Below, piece after piece: positions 1,554 to 38,820 of a DNA stretch of 44,092 bases. The notes beneath the pieces are model-generated. The model searched no databases. It was not told the origin of the DNA and saw only the letters and a list, made by a program, of their open reading frames with translations. A program made the position numbers and the translations under genes. The number at the start of each line of letters is the position of its first letter. The first letter of the stretch is position 1. This stretch comes from a virus, in the IMG/VR virus record IMGVR_UViG_3300043772_002937, positions 1 through 44,092 of that record; one strand, 5' to 3'.

Positions 1554-3413
1554 ATGGAATTGTCAAGTAAATTACTTTCGGACATTACTGTCTATATGAA
1601 GTACGCAAAATATATCCCCGAGTTAAATCGTAGGGAAACATGGGAAGAATTGGTGACGCGAAATAAAGAAATGCACCAAAAGAAATTCCCTCAATTAAAA
1701 GAAGAGATTGAAAAAGTTTATAAACTTGTTTATGATAAAAAAGTTTTACCTTCTATGAGAAGTTTACAGTTTGGTGGTAAACCTATTGAAATCTCCCCAA
1801 ACAGAATTTACAATTGTGCTTATATGCCAATTGACCACGTAGATTCTTTTTCTGAAGCAATGTTTTTATTGTTAGGTGGAACTGGTGTTGGATATTCAGT
1901 TCAAAAACACCACGTAGAGAAATTACCTGAGATTAAAAAACCAAGTTCAAATAGAACAAGAAGATATTTAATTGGTGATTCTATTGAAGGATGGGCTGAT
2001 TCAATTAAAGTTTTATTGGAGTCTTATTTTGGGGCTAAAGCGTCAACACCTATTTTTGACTTCTCTGACATTCGTCCAAAAGGAGCACGTTTAGTAACTT
2101 CAGGTGGTAAAGCTCCAGGACCTCAACCATTAAAAGATTGTTTACATAACATTAAAAAAGTATTAGACAATAAAGAAGATGGTGATAAACTTAAACCTAT
2201 TGAAGTACATGACATTGTTTGTTATATTGCTGACGCAGTATTAGCAGGTGGTATTCGTAGAGCAGCTCTTATTAGTTTATTTTCAGCTGATGATGATGAA
2301 ATGATTTCTTGTAAATCAGGAAACTGGTGGGAATTAAACGCACAAAGAGGTAGAGCTAATAATTCAGCTGTGTTAATGAGACATAAAGTAACAAAAGAAT
2401 ACTTTATGGATTTATGGAAACGTATTGAATTATCTGGAGCTGGTGAACCTGGTATTTACCTTTCTAATGATAAAGATTGGGGAACTAATCCTTGTTGTGA
2501 AATTGGGTTAAGACCATACCAATTCTGTAATCTTTGTGAAGTTAATGCATCTGACATCACTTCCCAAGAAGATTTTGAAGAAAGAGTTAAAGCAGCATCT
2601 TTCATTGGAACTCTTCAGGCAGGTTATACAGACTTTCATTATCTTCGTGATGTATGGAAACGTACAACTGAAAAAGATGCCTTAATTGGTGTAGGAATGA
2701 CTGGTATTGGGTCTGGTGTTGTGTTAGGTTATGACATGAAAAAAGGAGCTAAAGCGGTAAAAGAAGAAAACGAAAGAGTAGCTGGTTTATTAGGTATTAA
2801 CAAAGCGGCAAGAACTTCTACAGTTAAACCTTCAGGAACTTCTTCATTAGTTTTAGGAACTTCATCAGGTATTCACGCTTGGCATAATGATTATTATATT
2901 CGTCGTATTCGTGTTGGTAAGAATGAAGCTATTTACACATACCTTTCAATCTATCATCCTGAATTAGTTGAAGATGAATATTTCCGTCCACATGATACAG
3001 CTGTAATTTCTATTCCACAAAAAGCACCAGAAGGAGCTATTATGAGAACTGAATCAGTATTTCAATTATTGGAACGTGTGAAAAAAGTTTCTACAGAGTG
3101 GGTAAAAGCCGGACATAGAGGTGGTTCAAACTCACATAACGTATCAGCAACAATTTCAGTTAAAGAAAATGAATGGGAATTAGTTGGTGATTGGATGTGG
3201 GAAAACAAAGATTCATATAATGGTCTTTCTGTATTACCTTATGATGGTGGAACTTATACTCAAGCACCTTTTGAAGATTGTACAAAAGAAACATACGATA
3301 ACTTAATGAAGAGTTTGAAAGATGTTGATTTAACAAAAATCATTGAATTAGATGACGATACTAATTTAAGTGGTGAATTAGCTTGTGCAAACGGAGCTTG
3401 TGAAATTAAATAA
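1554..3413 (+). CDS. Adenosylcobalamin-dependent (class II) ribonucleotide reductase
   Basis: Makes deoxyribonucleotides for phage replication using an adenosylcobalamin-generated thiyl radical. The sequence resembles the monomeric Lactobacillus-type ribonucleoside-triphosphate reductase (family knowledge). Visible active-site elements are C88 in NRIYNCAYM (first redox cysteine), NPCCE at 312-316 (N312, radical cysteine C314, E316), C325 in QFCNL (second redox cysteine), and the C-terminal shuttle pair C611/C616 in CANGACEIK, which is normally re-reduced by thioredoxin. At 619 aa it is shorter than the roughly 740-aa bacterial enzyme, so some insertions or an effector domain may be reduced. 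No radical-generating partner subunit or activase is seen nearby, as expected for class II. A thioredoxin gene lies at 33713. The dependence on B12 is inferred from family. Confidence 0.9.
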   Translation: MELSSKLLSDITVYMKYAKYIPELNRRETWEELVTRNKEMHQKKFPQLKEEIEKVYKLVYDKKVLPSMRSLQFGGKPIEISPNRIYNCAYMPIDHVDSFSEAMFLLLGGTGVGYSVQKHHVEKLPEIKKPSSNRTRRYLIGDSIEGWADSIKVLLESYFGAKASTPIFDFSDIRPKGARLVTSGGKAPGPQPLKDCLHNIKKVLDNKEDGDKLKPIEVHDIVCYIADAVLAGGIRRAALISLFSADDDEMISCKSGNWWELNAQRGRANNSAVLMRHKVTKEYFMDLWKRIELSGAGEPGIYLSNDKDWGTNPCCEIGLRPYQFCNLCEVNASDITSQEDFEERVKAASFIGTLQAGYTDFHYLRDVWKRTTEKDALIGVGMTGIGSGVVLGYDMKKGAKAVKEENERVAGLLGINKAARTSTVKPSGTSSLVLGTSSGIHAWHNDYYIRRIRVGKNEAIYTYLSIYHPELVEDEYFRPHDTAVISIPQKAPEGAIMRTESVFQLLERVKKVSTEWVKAGHRGGSNSHNVSATISVKENEWELVGDWMWENKDSYNGLSVLPYDGGTYTQAPFEDCTKETYDNLMKSLKDVDLTKIIELDDDTNLSGELACANGACEIK

Positions 3414-34062: not shown

Positions 34063-34551
34063 ATGAAAAAAAGAGATAAAATAAAAAATTATGAACAAGC
34101 AAACTTAATGCTTGAACAATCTTATTTAAAATCTAAAGGGTTAATTAATGAGGTGGACCAAAAAATTGAAAAAGCTGCCGAACAAATAGCTAACAATCCA
34201 AAAGTTCAATCAGAATTAGAAGAAAAATTAAAAAATCTTTCACCGGAACAGATTGAAAAATTAGAAATGGATATACAAAAAGCTATAAATCAGTTAAAAG
34301 TTGAGTCAAAAAATCCAACTGATAATATGAGTTATATGGACTCAAAAAATAAAACTGAAATTACAAAAGAAAAAGTTGCTGACACTTTAGAAAGTGTGGC
34401 AAGTGCTGGAGCAAGTACTTTATTAGTACCAATCATACCTGTAGCTATTGGATCGGCAATAGGTAGTGTTGCAGCAGGATTTGGTGTGTTTATTTTAGGG
34501 ATAACAGCTCTATACGGTTTAGCCAAGGCGATTAAAAAAATCAGTTCTTAA
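34063..34551 (+). CDS. Membrane protein with N-terminal coiled coil (162 aa)
   Basis: Residues 1-85 are charged and helical with coiled-coil character (VDQKIEKAAEQIANNPKVQS then ELEEKLKNLSPEQIEKLEMD). Residues about 118-153 form a long Gly/Ala-rich hydrophobic stretch (LLVPIIPVAIGSAIGSVAAG then FGVFILGITALYG) that could be one long or two short membrane helices. It ends in a basic KAIKKISS. No signal peptide is seen. It may be an inner-membrane phage protein, such as a lysis- or takeover-related factor, but there is no specific family evidence. Its end overlaps the opposing gene by 11 bp. Confidence 0.6.
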   Translation: MKKRDKIKNYEQANLMLEQSYLKSKGLINEVDQKIEKAAEQIANNPKVQSELEEKLKNLSPEQIEKLEMDIQKAINQLKVESKNPTDNMSYMDSKNKTEITKEKVADTLESVASAGASTLLVPIIPVAIGSAIGSVAAGFGVFILGITALYGLAKAIKKISS

Positions 34552-35098
34552 CACGAAACTCAATAGAAAGACGGTTAAAACCCATCCAACCTTTACGAAT
34601 TCTCCAACGATATTCAAGGTTAGATTGAGGAACAAAACCGTCTTCTAATTGAATACCGATATTAGACTGAGTAATTTTATCAAGAATATCCTGACCAATA
34701 TTTTTAACAATACCGTCAACAAACTGATTGTAATTTTCAATCGCTTTGTCCATATTACCAGACCCAAAAATTCTAGCTACCGCAGCAGCCCCTTCACGAG
34801 ACGCAACTTTAAAAATCGGTTCAGAGTAAAGAGTCCAATCTTTAAGTTTAGAGGTCTTATATTTCTTAAGTTCAACACGTTCACCTTTATCCGTAATAGC
34901 ATCATACTTATCAAAAACAGATTCAGAAGTAGGAACAAATTTGTCGGGATTAAAACCAACCGACGCAATCTTTTCAAAGTTGGTACGACCAACACCCGAC
35001 CAAGAAATTTTAGGTGATTTAGAAACACGAACCCACCCTTTAGACTGACACATAGTATTCTCAAACACTACCCCTGATTTATTTCTAGCTTGACCCAT
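34541..35098 (-). CDS. Unknown leftward gene, possible PD-(D/E)XK-type nuclease (185 aa)
   Basis: A 185-aa protein on the opposite strand to its neighbours, with its own host-type promoter at 35129-35160. The N-terminal half shows a pattern compatible with a PD-(D/E)XK core: E13 in GVVFENTM, D66 in KYDAIT and E76-L-K78 in VELKKYK, in the right order and spacing. A restriction-like or repair nuclease role is therefore possible, but the match is short and I do not recognise the family. Its 3' end overlaps the convergent membrane-protein gene by 11 bp. An opposite-strand open frame inside it is a shadow. Confidence 0.6.
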   Translation of the reverse strand: MGQARNKSGVVFENTMCQSKGWVRVSKSPKISWSGVGRTNFEKIASVGFNPDKFVPTSESVFDKYDAITDKGERVELKKYKTSKLKDWTLYSEPIFKVASREGAAAVARIFGSGNMDKAIENYNQFVDGIVKNIGQDILDKITQSNIGIQLEDGFVPQSNLEYRWRIRKGWMGFNRLSIEFRVKN

Positions 35099-35128
35099 TT
35101 ACTGATTCGGTTTTTTTGATTAACATTA

Positions 35129-35160
35129 CAAATATAACAATATTATTTAAATTGGCAAAA
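35129..35160 (-). promoter_or_regulatory. Bacteroidetes-type promoter for the leftward gene
   Basis: On the minus strand TTTTG (35160-35156), a 19-bp spacer and TATATTTG (35136-35129) match the Bacteroidetes primary-sigma consensus TTTG/TAnnTTTG exactly. The -7 element ends about 30 bp before the ATG at 35098. The -33 element overlaps the start of the divergent gene at 35160. Confidence 0.85.
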
Positions 35161-36308
35161 TGGCAGAAGTTTTTGATACAAAATTAACCCCCGAAGAAAC
35201 CTTAGAATTAACAAATAGACTAATGGGTTTCTATGAGAACTTGGAAACAATCCAAGATTATTTCCTTGAAAGAAAAAAAGAAAAGGTGGTTGATTTGGAC
35301 CATGATAAATACACAAAGTTAATGTTCAATGATTATTCGATTGAACCAAAAGATATGAACTTCGAAATCGAAATTATCGAAGGTAAATTGTTTAATCCAG
35401 CAACACAGATTATAACTTCATTACCGTTAGAATCTCAAATCGGTCGTCAAATTATGTTAGGTATTAAAGAAACTAATAGTAACAAATATATTGGGTTTAT
35501 CCGTTTAGCATCTCCTGTTTTATCTATTAAACCACGTAACGATTTGTTTGGTGAACTTAAAATCACAGCAAACGAAGTTAACAAGTATATGATTAACGGA
35601 GCCATTATTGTCCCTGTTCAACCATTTGGGTATAACTACTTGGGTGGTAAATTATTAGCTTTAATTTGTTGTTCACATGAGGCACGTCAAATGTTAAAAG
35701 ATAAGTATGGTGACCGTATTGATACTGTTTTTATGGAAACAACTTCTCTTTACGGTGACATCAAAGGTGTGAGTCAATATGACGGTTTAAAACCGTTTAT
35801 GAAGTACGGTAGTATGACGGAGTCTGATTTATTCTTATTTCCTAATGATGAGGTTTTTATGGGTATCAGAAATGTCTTAAGACCTTTATACGGTAAACCT
35901 GAATGGAATGGTTCTATGGTAGACCCAGGTCCATCTGGTCCTAAAATGAGAGAATTTAATAAAATGATTTCTATTCTTAAAAATCATTTGAAAGTTCAAA
36001 ACCCTGTTAAGTTTAAAGAATTCAGTGACTTCACTAAGTCCCACATGAAAGCTAAAACCAAGAAAAGATATTACTATTGCAACTATGGTTATGATAATGT
36101 CCCACAATACATTGCAAGTGATGGTAAAGTACCTTTGGTTAAACGTGATAATTGGGATAGATACCATGTTGAACATATGATTGAATGGTGGAAGAATAAG
36201 GCTCAATCACGTTATGAAAAGTTAAAAGAAGAAGGTAGATTAAGAAATGATTTGGAAATCTATACTCTAGAACGTATTGAATCAGGTAATGTTGATATGG
36301 TTAGATAA
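35160..36308 (+). CDS. DUF4338/DruA-like protein (382 aa)
   Basis: The central region follows the pattern I recall for the DUF4338/DruA family: IGFIRLASP (111-119), PVQPFGYNYLGGKLL (152-166, compare 'vrvpNLaShlL'), then KYGDRIDTVFMETTSLYGD (182-200) and a Y...G element (207-218, compare 'TFV...GT.Y.A.NW'). DruA is a core protein of the Druantia defence system, and its biochemical activity is not established. The layout also resembles GNAT-type acyltransferases. Here it heads a small rightward island with a P-loop NTPase and a Mom-like protein. The family call is by recollection and moderate. Its TAA overlaps the next ATG (TAATG). Confidence 0.5.
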   Translation: MAEVFDTKLTPEETLELTNRLMGFYENLETIQDYFLERKKEKVVDLDHDKYTKLMFNDYSIEPKDMNFEIEIIEGKLFNPATQIITSLPLESQIGRQIMLGIKETNSNKYIGFIRLASPVLSIKPRNDLFGELKITANEVNKYMINGAIIVPVQPFGYNYLGGKLLALICCSHEARQMLKDKYGDRIDTVFMETTSLYGDIKGVSQYDGLKPFMKYGSMTESDLFLFPNDEVFMGIRNVLRPLYGKPEWNGSMVDPGPSGPKMREFNKMISILKNHLKVQNPVKFKEFSDFTKSHMKAKTKKRYYYCNYGYDNVPQYIASDGKVPLVKRDNWDRYHVEHMIEWWKNKAQSRYEKLKEEGRLRNDLEIYTLERIESGNVDMVR

Positions 36309-36454
36309 TGAAGTTAATAATTAAAACAGAAGAAATTCACTTTGAGATAGAAAAAGAATATGAAGGTGATTCCAGCATCAGTGCACTTAAAGAATTAATT
36401 ACTAAGGTAGCAGACGAAACTATTAAAATAAAAAAAACCGAACACTTAACATAA
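36308..36454 (+). CDS. Small acidic protein of the modification island (48 aa)
   Basis: A 48-aa frame, MKLIIKTEEIHFEIEKEYEG continuing through SALKELITKVADETIKIKKT, starts at TAATG overlapping the previous stop and ends 1 bp before the next gene. It therefore fills the gap exactly and is very likely translated. It looks like a beta hairpin followed by a helix. No family recognised. Confidence 0.65.
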   Translation: MKLIIKTEEIHFEIEKEYEGDSSISALKELITKVADETIKIKKTEHLT

Positions 36455-36455
36455 A

Positions 36456-37019
36456 ATGTACGTAGAAATTTCTCCAAGGCAATCTGGTAAGACAACACGT
36501 CTTGTTCAGGCTGTTTCGGATTATTTAAGACATAACCCAACACATAATATAGCTGTGGTTGGTATGAATAGTAAAAATGTTGTAGATTTAAAAGATAAAT
36601 TTACTAGACTATTAACCAATCAAAATATCAATAGAATTACCTTTATGTCAGGTAACCTATTTGGTAAGTTTAACACTGAACCTGATTATTGGTTTTTTGA
36701 TGAATTTTGGTATATAAAAGAAGATTACGTTAGACACCCCATATATCAAAATATTATTGATAACGGATATTATTGTACAACACCGGGTCACCTATCAACA
36801 AACGTAATAGTTGACCATTGTATTCAAAGAGGTATTCAAATACATTTCAATAATCCTTGGACTGAACAAGTTATACAAGAAAATTTATGGAGTGATTATC
36901 TTAGAGACTCCGTCTTAGGTGATTGGGTTAGATTTATGGAATCTAAAGGTCTAATAAACGGTATTAAGATTAATTTAATTAGAAAAGAAATAAGAAAACA
37001 CAGATTCACCTCTTGGTAA
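36456..37019 (+). CDS. Small P-loop NTPase, terminase-ATPase-like (187 aa)
   Basis: Walker A SPRQSGKTT (6-14) lies at the very N-terminus. Walker B FFDEFW (80-85, D82 and E83) follows at the spacing seen in terminase and helicase-type ATPase domains; IAVVGMNSKN between them fits the second strand. No nuclease domain follows, so it is not a complete large terminase. The C-terminal 70 residues are helical and basic. Lying between the DUF4338-like and Mom-like genes, it may provide an ATP-dependent step for that system. The next ATG follows directly after its TAA. Confidence 0.65.
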   Translation: MYVEISPRQSGKTTRLVQAVSDYLRHNPTHNIAVVGMNSKNVVDLKDKFTRLLTNQNINRITFMSGNLFGKFNTEPDYWFFDEFWYIKEDYVRHPIYQNIIDNGYYCTTPGHLSTNVIVDHCIQRGIQIHFNNPWTEQVIQENLWSDYLRDSVLGDWVRFMESKGLINGIKINLIRKEIRKHRFTSW

Positions 37020-37811
37020 ATGAAATATAGATTTGAAATAAAAGAAGTTAATAGAGTCACAGCCACAAACTTTGTACAGGAAAGACACTACTCTAAAGTA
37101 ATGCCTAAGTTAACCAAACATTGGCTTGGTTGTTTTTTAGAAGATGAGTTAGTCGGTGTTTTAACTTTAGGTTGGGGTACACAACCATTACAAACAATTA
37201 AAAAGTTATTCCCTGATTTAAAATCAAGTGATTACTATGAGATTGGTAAGATGTGTATGGATGAGAAAATGCCAAAAAATTCCGAATCTCAAATGCTAGC
37301 TTCAGTTGTTAGATGGATGAAAAAAAATCTACCTGAAAAGAAATTCTTATACACTTGGGCAGATGGTATTGTTGGTAAGGTAGGGTATGTATACCAAGGC
37401 TCTAACTTCAACTACGGCGGGTTTATTTGGACTGATATCTATATTTCCCCAACAGGTGAAAAGATTCACCCTAGAAGTTCAAAAGCTTTATTAAAAGAAA
37501 ATGCTGAGTTTTTGGGTAAAGAAAAATTGTTTTGGATGACACCTGATTTCATGGCTATAAATGGTATTAGAAGAATTAGAGGTAAACAATTTAGATATAT
37601 CTACCCTTTAACAAAAGAAGCTAAAGTAATTATAGAAAAAGGTTCTACTGTGGATTGGCAACAAAAATACCCAAAAGAAGGCGATTTGTTATGGAAAGAA
37701 CAGGTCGGTAAGGGTAGTTATGTTAATTTAATTGGAAAACCTGAAATGGATTTAAGTATTGTTGAGTATAATGAAAAAAATGTTAACGCACATAAAAAGG
37801 TAATTAAATGA
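37020..37811 (+). CDS. Mom-like DNA modification protein (GNAT-type fold)
   Basis: A 263-aa protein resembling the phage Mu Mom family, which has an acyltransferase-like fold and modifies adenine to methylcarbamoyl-adenine to block restriction (family knowledge). Matching features are the N-terminal QERHYSKVMPKL (H23, Y24, S25), the strand WLGCFLEDELVGVLTLGWG, EIGKMCMDEKMPKNSESQML with the following helix, and YTWADGIVGKVGYVYQGSNF (D115). In Mu, mom is tightly regulated and needs a partner gene; no com homologue is seen here. It overlaps the next gene by 4 bp. Other GNAT-like roles remain possible. Confidence 0.62.
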   Translation: MKYRFEIKEVNRVTATNFVQERHYSKVMPKLTKHWLGCFLEDELVGVLTLGWGTQPLQTIKKLFPDLKSSDYYEIGKMCMDEKMPKNSESQMLASVVRWMKKNLPEKKFLYTWADGIVGKVGYVYQGSNFNYGGFIWTDIYISPTGEKIHPRSSKALLKENAEFLGKEKLFWMTPDFMAINGIRRIRGKQFRYIYPLTKEAKVIIEKGSTVDWQQKYPKEGDLLWKEQVGKGSYVNLIGKPEMDLSIVEYNEKNVNAHKKVIK

Positions 37812-38110
37812 TGGAAGAGTGGTTTTTAGAAGAGTTTGGACCGTATGGTTTTACATTAACACAAACTTTGTATAGCCCTGATACTTTTACACCTTGTAAA
37901 CAAGTTATACACCCAAAAGGTTTTAAAACTTCAATTAATTTAACAGAAGAAATAACTGATGATTTAAATGGTTGGTCTGTATCATCTAAAGAATGGGTAA
38001 TAGAGGAGTGTAAGATTTTAATTAGAGAACATTTGTTAAATACTTATCCTGAAGTTTTTGAGAGAAAAGACTTCTTACCAAAACAAAATTTGGATCAATT
38101 TAAATTTTAG
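37808..38110 (+). CDS. Unknown small protein after the Mom-like gene (100 aa)
   Basis: A 100-aa protein starting at an ATGA overlap with the Mom-like gene, hence translationally coupled. The sequence is mixed with several aromatic residues (EEWFLEEFGPYGFTLTQTLY) and a C-terminal acidic helix. No family recognised. It could be a partner of the Mom-like protein. It converges on the leftward gene with an 11-bp overlap. Confidence 0.55.
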   Translation: MMEEWFLEEFGPYGFTLTQTLYSPDTFTPCKQVIHPKGFKTSINLTEEITDDLNGWSVSSKEWVIEECKILIREHLLNTYPEVFERKDFLPKQNLDQFKF

Positions 38111-38774
38111 ATAATAAATCATCACCATCAACAACTTGAACCTGTGGGTGGTCAAGAATAAAATTTAAACGTCTTTCTTTATCACCTTCAGTTTCAAGGT
38201 CATCAAAAGTTGATAACATCAATATTTTTCTATCACCAAAGGTTGAGTTCATACGTGAATATAAACTATTAGAGACATCCCAGTTTACGGATTCGATAGT
38301 ATATATTTTATCTTTAACATCTTTAGGGGTTATTAATCTTTCACCTCTATGGTACCAAGTATAACCCATTTCTAAAAGTTTTGTTTGTAAGTCGTAAGTA
38401 TCTTGAACATCAACACCATTTCTAAATATGATAACAAAATTAGGTTTAAGGTTTTCTATATTAATCTTTTTAACATTTAGTTGTTTATAAAAATTAAAAT
38501 CAGGGTCGTAAGCTTTAATTAAACCACGAGCAACTAAGTCCTTAACATAACCTTCACTTTTGTAAGACTTACCATGTTTGGCTTGAAATATATAAACAGG
38601 ATAGGTAATATTTGGAGTATCACCAAAACCCATTTTATGAGCTGGATCATAACCAACATAAGTATAAGTTTCCCAATTATTACCTGATTTGATATGATAA
38701 TCGGCACCAATCTCAAAATCTATGACATCATCTATAGACGGTAACCAACTAAAATCTTCTTCGAAGTTTGACAT
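38100..38774 (-). CDS. Unknown leftward gene (224 aa)
   Basis: A 224-aa protein on the minus strand. The N-terminal half is beta-rich with aromatic residues (NNWETYTYVGYDPAHKMGFG). The C-terminal half has an alternating alpha/beta pattern, with VIIFRNGVDVQDTYDLQTKL and a later KILMLSTFDDL strand. No catalytic motif is seen. It is read from a TATATTTG element at 38805-38812. Together with the leftward gene at 34541-35098 it flanks the modification island, but its function is unknown. Confidence 0.55.
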   Translation of the reverse strand: MSNFEEDFSWLPSIDDVIDFEIGADYHIKSGNNWETYTYVGYDPAHKMGFGDTPNITYPVYIFQAKHGKSYKSEGYVKDLVARGLIKAYDPDFNFYKQLNVKKINIENLKPNFVIIFRNGVDVQDTYDLQTKLLEMGYTWYHRGERLITPKDVKDKIYTIESVNWDVSNSLYSRMNSTFGDRKILMLSTFDDLETEGDKERRLNFILDHPQVQVVDGDDLLSKI

Positions 38775-38804
38775 TTACTACTAAGTTTAAAAAGTTTATT
38801 ATTA

Positions 38805-38812
38805 CAAATATA
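38805..38812 (-). promoter_or_regulatory. TATATTTG -7 element of the leftward gene
   Basis: On the minus strand TATATTTG followed by TAAT is identical to the -7 region of the 35129 promoter and lies about 30 bp before the ATG, the same distance. At the expected -33 position (19 bp upstream) there is no TTG; the nearest one gives a 14-bp spacer. It is probably a weak or activated promoter. Confidence 0.55.
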
Positions 38813-38820
38813 CTATAAAT

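What the first reader, a model, noticed from the sequence alone, without database searches (positions are those of the whole stretch)
34541..38774. Compact candidate modification / anti-defence island bounded by leftward genes
Five coupled rightward genes (DUF4338-like, 48-aa protein, P-loop NTPase, Mom-like, 100-aa protein) are flanked by two minus-strand genes, the only ones in the window. Both flanking genes end in 11-bp convergent overlaps and share a TATATTTG-TAAT promoter core about 30 bp before the ATG. The left one may be a PD-(D/E)XK nuclease. An ATPase between two acyltransferase-like proteins, with a possible nuclease beside them, suggests an undescribed modification or counter-defence system.
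Basis: inference. Interest (0 to 1): 0.68.

Follow-up and report, generated by a model that had tools for sequence, protein, structure and literature searches.

The report
Phage Mom/DruA locus with orphan nuclease
A T4-like virus, probably of Bacteroidota bacteria, carries next to its DNA-repair genes a DNA-decorating enzyme (Mom), a relative of the bacterial defence protein DruA, a small ATPase and an undescribed nuclease-like gene; this is a swappable mix of DNA-protection genes in a replication block, not one new dedicated system.

Summary
In detail: five rightward genes, two flanking leftward genes, 11-bp convergent overlaps and paired TATATTTG promoters (Bacteroidota -33/-7 type) all lie at the stated coordinates.

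- 37020-37811 is a true Mom-family gene (Pfam 4.5e-53; profile match to the Mu Mom structure 6.6e-25).
- 35160-36308 is a DruA/DUF4338 protein with a GNAT-like model; in T4-like marine phages it sits among replisome genes.
- 36456-37019 is a small phage ATPase also found in replication modules of unrelated phages.
- The left minus-strand gene has no database match. Ten homologues keep an invariant E..D..ExK nuclease signature, and one lies beside a DNA methyltransferase. I read it as restriction-endonuclease-like; its fold is unproven.
- The right minus-strand gene is clade-specific and in relatives heads a leftward cluster of secreted, type IX-tagged proteins.

In nine related lineages the DruA-ATPase pair is constant. 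The next slot holds Mom, a second DruA or neither, and Mom lies elsewhere in three contigs.

Best reading: an exchangeable modification/nuclease cassette in the recombination block, a variant of the known Mom-nuclease theme. The most novel open point is whether DruA-type GNATs modify DNA during replication.

The parts
34541..35098 (-). LEFT: undescribed PD-(D/E)XK-like nuclease family, restriction-endonuclease-like (predicted)
   Evidence: No Pfam/PHROG/NCBIfam/PADLOC/PDB match. E13, D66, E76-x-K78 invariant in 10 homologues of 37-92% identity; such a pattern arose in 1.3% or 0.6% of shuffles. L092 homologue 49 nt downstream of an N6_N4_Mtase gene.
35099..35159 (.). Divergent LEFT/DruA intergenic region; minus-strand Bacteroidota-type promoter TTTG-N19-TATATTTG, -7 element at -38 from the LEFT ATG
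   Evidence: TATATTTG also at -38 in L067 and L069.
35160..36308 (+). DruA/DUF4338-like protein, GNAT-like acyltransferase fold; CoA-loop-like motif QPFGYNYLGGKL
   Evidence: Pfam DruA 1.1e-15 (58 bits, cut-off 27), phrog_19197 1.1e-90. AlphaFold2 model pLDDT 84.6. PDB matches dominated by GNATs incl. Mu Mom 8bv8, none below E 0.001. Replisome-adjacent in T4-like phages.
36308..36454 (+). 48-aa ORF, small fast-evolving protein
   Evidence: 58% identical over 48 codons in L067, dN/dS 0.31; absent or replaced in other relatives.
36456..37019 (+). PL: small P-loop NTPase (Walker A PRQSGKT, acidic Walker-B-like FDEF), phrog_5437-like
   Evidence: phrog_5437 6.5e-6, AAA_14 5e-4 below cut-off; alignment A4; follows DruA in all nine relatives; similar proteins in replication modules of other phages.
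37020..37811 (+). Mom-family DNA modification enzyme (predicted adenine acyl modification)
   Evidence: Pfam Mom 4.5e-53 (180 bits, cut-off 27), phrog_1384 1.7e-41; profile match to 8bv8 6.6e-25, the Ser mutated in 8bv8 aligning with S90 (numbering inferred).
37808..38110 (+). 100-aa ORF of unknown function, 4-bp overlap with mom
   Evidence: Homologues in the same locus in L001, L003, L067, L069; dN/dS 0.59.
38100..38774 (-). RIGHT: clade-specific protein of unknown function; first gene of a leftward run of secreted proteins in relatives
   Evidence: No family match; homologues only in this phage group; leftward cluster in L010, L011, L069.
38775..38820 (.). RIGHT promoter region, TATATTTG at -38 from its ATG
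   Evidence: same offset in L067, TATATTTA variant in L010, L011, L069.

Best explanation
This is a flexible DNA-modification/nuclease locus inserted in the recombination-replication block (RuvC-like resolvase, primase, exonuclease, gp47, gp46) of a T4-like phage that probably infects Bacteroidota. Mom adds a bulky acyl group to adenines of phage DNA (inferred from family) so that host restriction enzymes, and possibly the phage's own LEFT nuclease, cannot cut it. LEFT is a restriction-endonuclease-like PD-(D/E)XK protein expressed from its own host-type promoter that would cut unmodified DNA of the host or of rival phages (inferred). The DruA-like protein is a GNAT-fold enzyme of the replication module, likely acting on phage DNA or a replication protein (inferred), and PL is a replication-module ATPase. 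Shown: gene content, families, synteny, slot exchange, and the nuclease-type residue pattern. Inferred: all chemistry, and who is protected from whom.
For: Mom. DruA fold; PMC10853773 independently calls DUF4338 a GNAT domain. LEFT motif and MTase neighbour. Comparable pairings: Mom fused to PDDEXK_11 in L062; D12 methylase plus a weakly nuclease-like gene just upstream of DruA, at LEFT's position, in L004. Exchangeable slot. Mom of the window is as close to that of L010/L011/L069 (89-90% aa) as they are to each other (90-91%), while DruA is 75-77% versus 90-93%, and PL and LEFT follow the DruA pattern, so Mom moves separately. Replication-block context: and the phage annotations. Bacteroidota host: TAnnTTTG promoters and T9SS tags.
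Against: LEFT's only fold prediction (single sequence) was unusable (pLDDT 41) and no nuclease profile matches it. LEFT tracks the DruA/PL backbone rather than Mom: it is present without an adjacent Mom in L002, L003 and L067, so Mom need not be its protecting partner. DruA and Mom profiles do not align (hhalign probability 0.2%). The sampled genomes are fragments.
Confidence: 0.5

Rival explanations
1. A dedicated, undescribed modification or counter-defence system in which DruA, PL and Mom work as one complex with LEFT as its nuclease arm.
For: Tight spacing in the window; DruA followed by PL in nine of nine relatives, and PL followed directly by Mom or a second DruA in six of them plus the window; LEFT present in seven of ten lineages including the window.
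Against: Mom is absent from the slot in L001, L002, L003, L004, L067 and elsewhere in the contig in three of them; PL and DruA occur separately in other phages; Mom's divergence pattern differs from that of PL, DruA and LEFT.
Confidence: 0.12
2. DruA and PL are purely replication/recombination accessory proteins (for example a protein acyltransferase and a helper ATPase); Mom and LEFT are unrelated passengers at an insertion hot spot, LEFT being a selfish homing-like nuclease.
For: DruA lies between or next to clamp-loader genes, next to gp43/uvsX, or just upstream of gp47/gp46 in T4-like phages; PL-like genes sit by the sliding clamp or exonucleases in other phages; relatives carry other nuclease-like insertions at the same places.
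Against: LEFT's position, strand and sequence are retained in seven of ten lineages with purifying selection (dN/dS 0.12-0.24), more stable than expected of a homing gene; one homologue is paired with a methyltransferase.
Confidence: 0.3
3. The DruA-like gene is a phage-carried Druantia component used against rival phages.
For: Pfam and PADLOC DruA matches; the Phold paper reports structural similarity of Synechococcus phage homologues to DruA (PMC12774648).
Against: No other Druantia protein among the flanking genes or the ten large window proteins scanned; the gene is embedded in replication operons in independent phage lineages.
Confidence: 0.05

Closest known systems
Mom family (phage Mu Mom, Pfam PF25680, PDB 8bv8)
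   Same: Above the curated cut-off along the whole family profile; key serine position conserved; phage-borne.
   Different: Sits in a T4-like recombination block downstream of a P-loop gene, without an identified Com-type regulator; substrate and product untested.
Jumbo-phage Mom fused to a REase-fold nuclease (PMC7824862)
   Same: Mom plus a nuclease in one phage locus, proposed there to protect phage DNA while attacking other DNA; a Mom-PDDEXK_11 fusion was found here in L062.
   Different: In the window the nuclease is a separate gene on the opposite strand with its own promoter, from an unnamed family, and it persists without Mom beside it in relatives.
DruA / DUF4338 (Pfam PF14236; Druantia; DndF fusions, PMC10853773)
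   Same: Significant profile match, GNAT-like fold.
   Different: No other Druantia component found; part of the replication/recombination block in T4-like phages; function unknown in both settings.
Type II restriction-modification pairs
   Same: LEFT homologue in L092 directly downstream of an N6/N4 DNA methyltransferase.
   Different: In the window the only candidate modifying neighbours are Mom and DruA; no methylase lies in the island.

Membership tests
Mom (PF25680) | Match over the family's curated cut-off along the whole domain | tested here: met
   180 bits against cut-off 27.1, profile positions 2-202 of 202; 8bv8 match 6.6e-25.
Mom (PF25680) | Serine mutated in the inactive S124A structure is conserved | tested here: met
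   8bv8 residue aligned to S90 of the window protein is Ala in the mutant chain; Ser or Thr in all 16 homologues. Offset of 9 inferred from chain length 232 versus 241 aa (own knowledge).
Mom (PF25680) | Modifies adenine in DNA | not testable with these tools
   Needs mass spectrometry.
GNAT superfamily (DruA-like gene) | GNAT fold | tested here: met
   Model pLDDT 84.6; most of the best 50 PDB matches are GNATs, probability up to 0.99, but all E-values above 0.01; literature calls DUF4338 a GNAT.
GNAT superfamily (DruA-like gene) | Acyl-CoA binding loop [QR]xxGx[GA] | tested here: inconclusive
   QPFGYN in the window and RHFGYN in the second paralogue, Asn at the last position; CoA binding untested.
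Druantia defence system | DruA together with the other Druantia genes | tested here: not met
   Only the DruA match among seven island proteins and ten large window proteins; the window is a fragment.
PD-(D/E)XK nuclease (LEFT) | D-x(n)-(D/E)-x-K with upstream acidic residue conserved across homologues | tested here: met
   E13, D66, E76, K78 invariant in 10 sequences.
PD-(D/E)XK nuclease (LEFT) | PD-(D/E)XK fold | tested here: inconclusive
   Single-sequence model pLDDT 41, not usable; no profile match.
Type II restriction-modification | Cognate DNA modification enzyme beside the nuclease | tested here: inconclusive
   Methyltransferase next to the L092 homologue only; the window has Mom and DruA nearby.
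phrog_5437 small P-loop proteins (PL) | Profile match and Walker motifs | tested here: met
   6.5e-6; PRQSGKT and FDEF in alignment A4; flanking residues of the Walker-B-like motif vary among members.

The most novel reading that the evidence does not exclude
DruA/DUF4338 GNATs are a second class of DNA base acyltransferases, working at the phage replication fork and interchangeable with Mom in the slot behind PL, and LEFT is an unnamed restriction nuclease family tuned to spare acyl-modified DNA.
Probability: 0.22. Interest if true: 0.75.

Novelty: new variant of a known kind. Interest (0 to 1): 0.42.

Why it matters
DruA is part of a bacterial defence system but its chemistry is unknown. T4-like phages carry it inside the replisome operon, and in one phage group a DruA paralogue occupies the same slot that Mom occupies in close relatives. 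That exchange makes DNA acylation by DruA directly testable, and it points to an unnamed nuclease family that may depend on such modification.

Tried and rejected
Nucleotide search of the region in phage records: no match. LEFT and RIGHT in phage records by tblastn: none; in cellular genomes: none; LEFT homologue in plasmids: none. A single-sequence fold of LEFT gave an unusable model; I submitted it without the alignment by oversight, so the fold test for LEFT is missing. Profile comparison of DruA with Mom found nothing, so a sequence-level link between the two is rejected; only the fold suggests kinship. PDB profile searches for PL, LEFT, RIGHT and DruA gave only chance matches or none. The weak LEFT-like match in a 735-kb phage is part of a larger protein and was not used. 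The Druantia-system reading was rejected for lack of the other genes. The idea that Mom was very recently transferred was not supported by synonymous sites, which are near saturation; the claim is kept only as separate inheritance. The LmuB PADLOC match of gp46 is read as ordinary gp46/SMC-type similarity.
Full report
What the window is. The record is a 44,092-bp IMG/VR virus fragment with no tRNA genes. Genes around the finding are a RuvC-like resolvase, primase and exonuclease upstream, and gp47/gp46-type SbcD/SbcC proteins downstream, so the finding lies in a T4-like recombination-replication block. Two lines point to a Bacteroidota host: the TAnnTTTG promoter type (Bacteroidota consensus from general knowledge) and type IX secretion tags in relatives.

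Coordinates, strands, junctions and 11-bp overlaps are as stated. The shared promoter core is real and unlikely by chance. It is retained at -38 before LEFT in L067 and L069 and before RIGHT in L067; other relatives have variants or nothing clear.

Gene by gene. Mom is unambiguous. The DUF4338-like gene is a DruA-family protein, whose model (pLDDT 84.6) resembles GNAT enzymes including Mu Mom. Individual E-values are weak, but most of the list is GNAT, and PMC10853773 states that DUF4338 is a GNAT domain. The DruA and Mom profiles are not alignable by sequence. PL has Walker A PRQSGKT and FDEF and belongs to a family of small phage ATPases (phrog_5437). LEFT has no known relatives by profile, yet E13, D66, E76 and K78 are invariant in ten homologues. 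Shuffling the invariant residues gives such a motif in about 1% of trials, so the motif alone is suggestive. A homologue in L092 follows an N6_N4 methyltransferase on the same strand (PF01555 1.1e-29), the arrangement of a type II restriction-modification pair. RIGHT is found only in this phage group.

Synteny. Nine related lineages were compared (L001, L002, L003, L004, L005/L067, L009/L010, L011-L013, L014/L069, L107). In all nine DruA is followed by PL, directly or after a few small ORFs. LEFT lies in front of DruA, on the opposite strand, in six. The gene directly after PL is Mom in three lineages and the window, a second DruA (Pfam 9.9e-29 for L067) in three, and neither in L003 and L004; L107 ends there. 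In L003, L004 and L002 a Mom gene exists elsewhere on the contig, about 29, 36 and over 280 kb away. Among the 57 Mom loci found with the window protein, DruA or PL lies within the fetched flanks only in this phage group, plus one DruA 3.2 kb away in L035.

Independent inheritance. DruA, PL and LEFT of the window are closest to L067 (93, 70 and 92% aa), whereas L067 has no Mom at this locus. The window's Mom is 89-90% identical to those of L010, L011 and L069, which are 90-91% identical to each other, while DruA is 75-77% versus 90-93% for the same comparisons. So Mom is exchanged separately from the DruA-PL-LEFT backbone.

Wider context of DruA and PL. Ten annotated T4-like phages with DruA were examined. 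In seven it lies within one or two genes of clamp-loader genes gp44 and/or gp62; in HTVC008M it lies between gp43 and uvsX, with one small ORF in between; in S-B68 it lies two genes upstream of gp47, with gp46 following, as in the window. Mosig is different. PL-like proteins sit by the sliding clamp in Cygsa01, among exonucleases in a Friunavirus and after a RecA-like gene in L110. Both are therefore replication-module genes first, and their pairing is a trait of this phage group.

Mechanism. Most likely Mom protects phage DNA by adenine modification. LEFT is a nuclease that would spare phage DNA and cut other DNA. DruA is a GNAT enzyme working with the replication machinery on an unknown target. 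The first step rests on family membership, the second on residue pattern and neighbour evidence, the third on fold and context. None has been shown biochemically.

Against known kinds. Mom with a nuclease is already described in jumbo phages as a fusion (PMC7824862), and a fusion was found here in L062. The window differs in having a separate, opposite-strand, unnamed nuclease gene and a DruA/Mom exchange slot. DruA-like proteins in cyanophages were noted by the Phold authors (PMC12774648), and one record labels a homologue as Mom. I therefore rate this a new variant of a known kind.

Noticed in passing
L010:6781-10422 (-); L011:6788-8635 (-); L069:7701-10662 (-): Between Mom and RIGHT, relatives carry a leftward cluster of secreted proteins with Bacteroidota-type signal peptides; in L010 one has a CHU_C type IX secretion signal (1.6e-16) and another PKD plus Por_Secre_tail. 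Phage-encoded T9SS cargo; T9SS-tagged variable phage genes were reported in PMC7468147.
   Followed up: partly
L010:11969-12562 (+); L011:10162-10755 (+): A second Mom-family gene (2.6e-29 in L010) lies just downstream of gp47 in the same phages; L015 and L021 also carry tandem Mom genes.
   Followed up: partly
L004:359-1809 (+): At LEFT's position this relative has a D12-class adenine methylase followed by a gene with only weak PD-(D/E)XK-like similarity.
   Followed up: partly
L062:5488-6918 (+): Natural fusion of a PDDEXK_11 nuclease domain to Mom in one 476-aa protein.
   Followed up: partly
L067:276-998 and 2342-3235 (+); L003:4137-5042 (-): Related proteins inserted at different points around LEFT in different phages; the L003 copy matches DUF723 with weak DUF559, suggesting mobile homing-type nuclease genes.
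   Followed up: no
L001:9943-12033 (+): gp47 is interrupted after about residue 193 by roughly 1.2-1.3 kb holding two ORFs; probably an intron or inserted homing gene.
   Followed up: no
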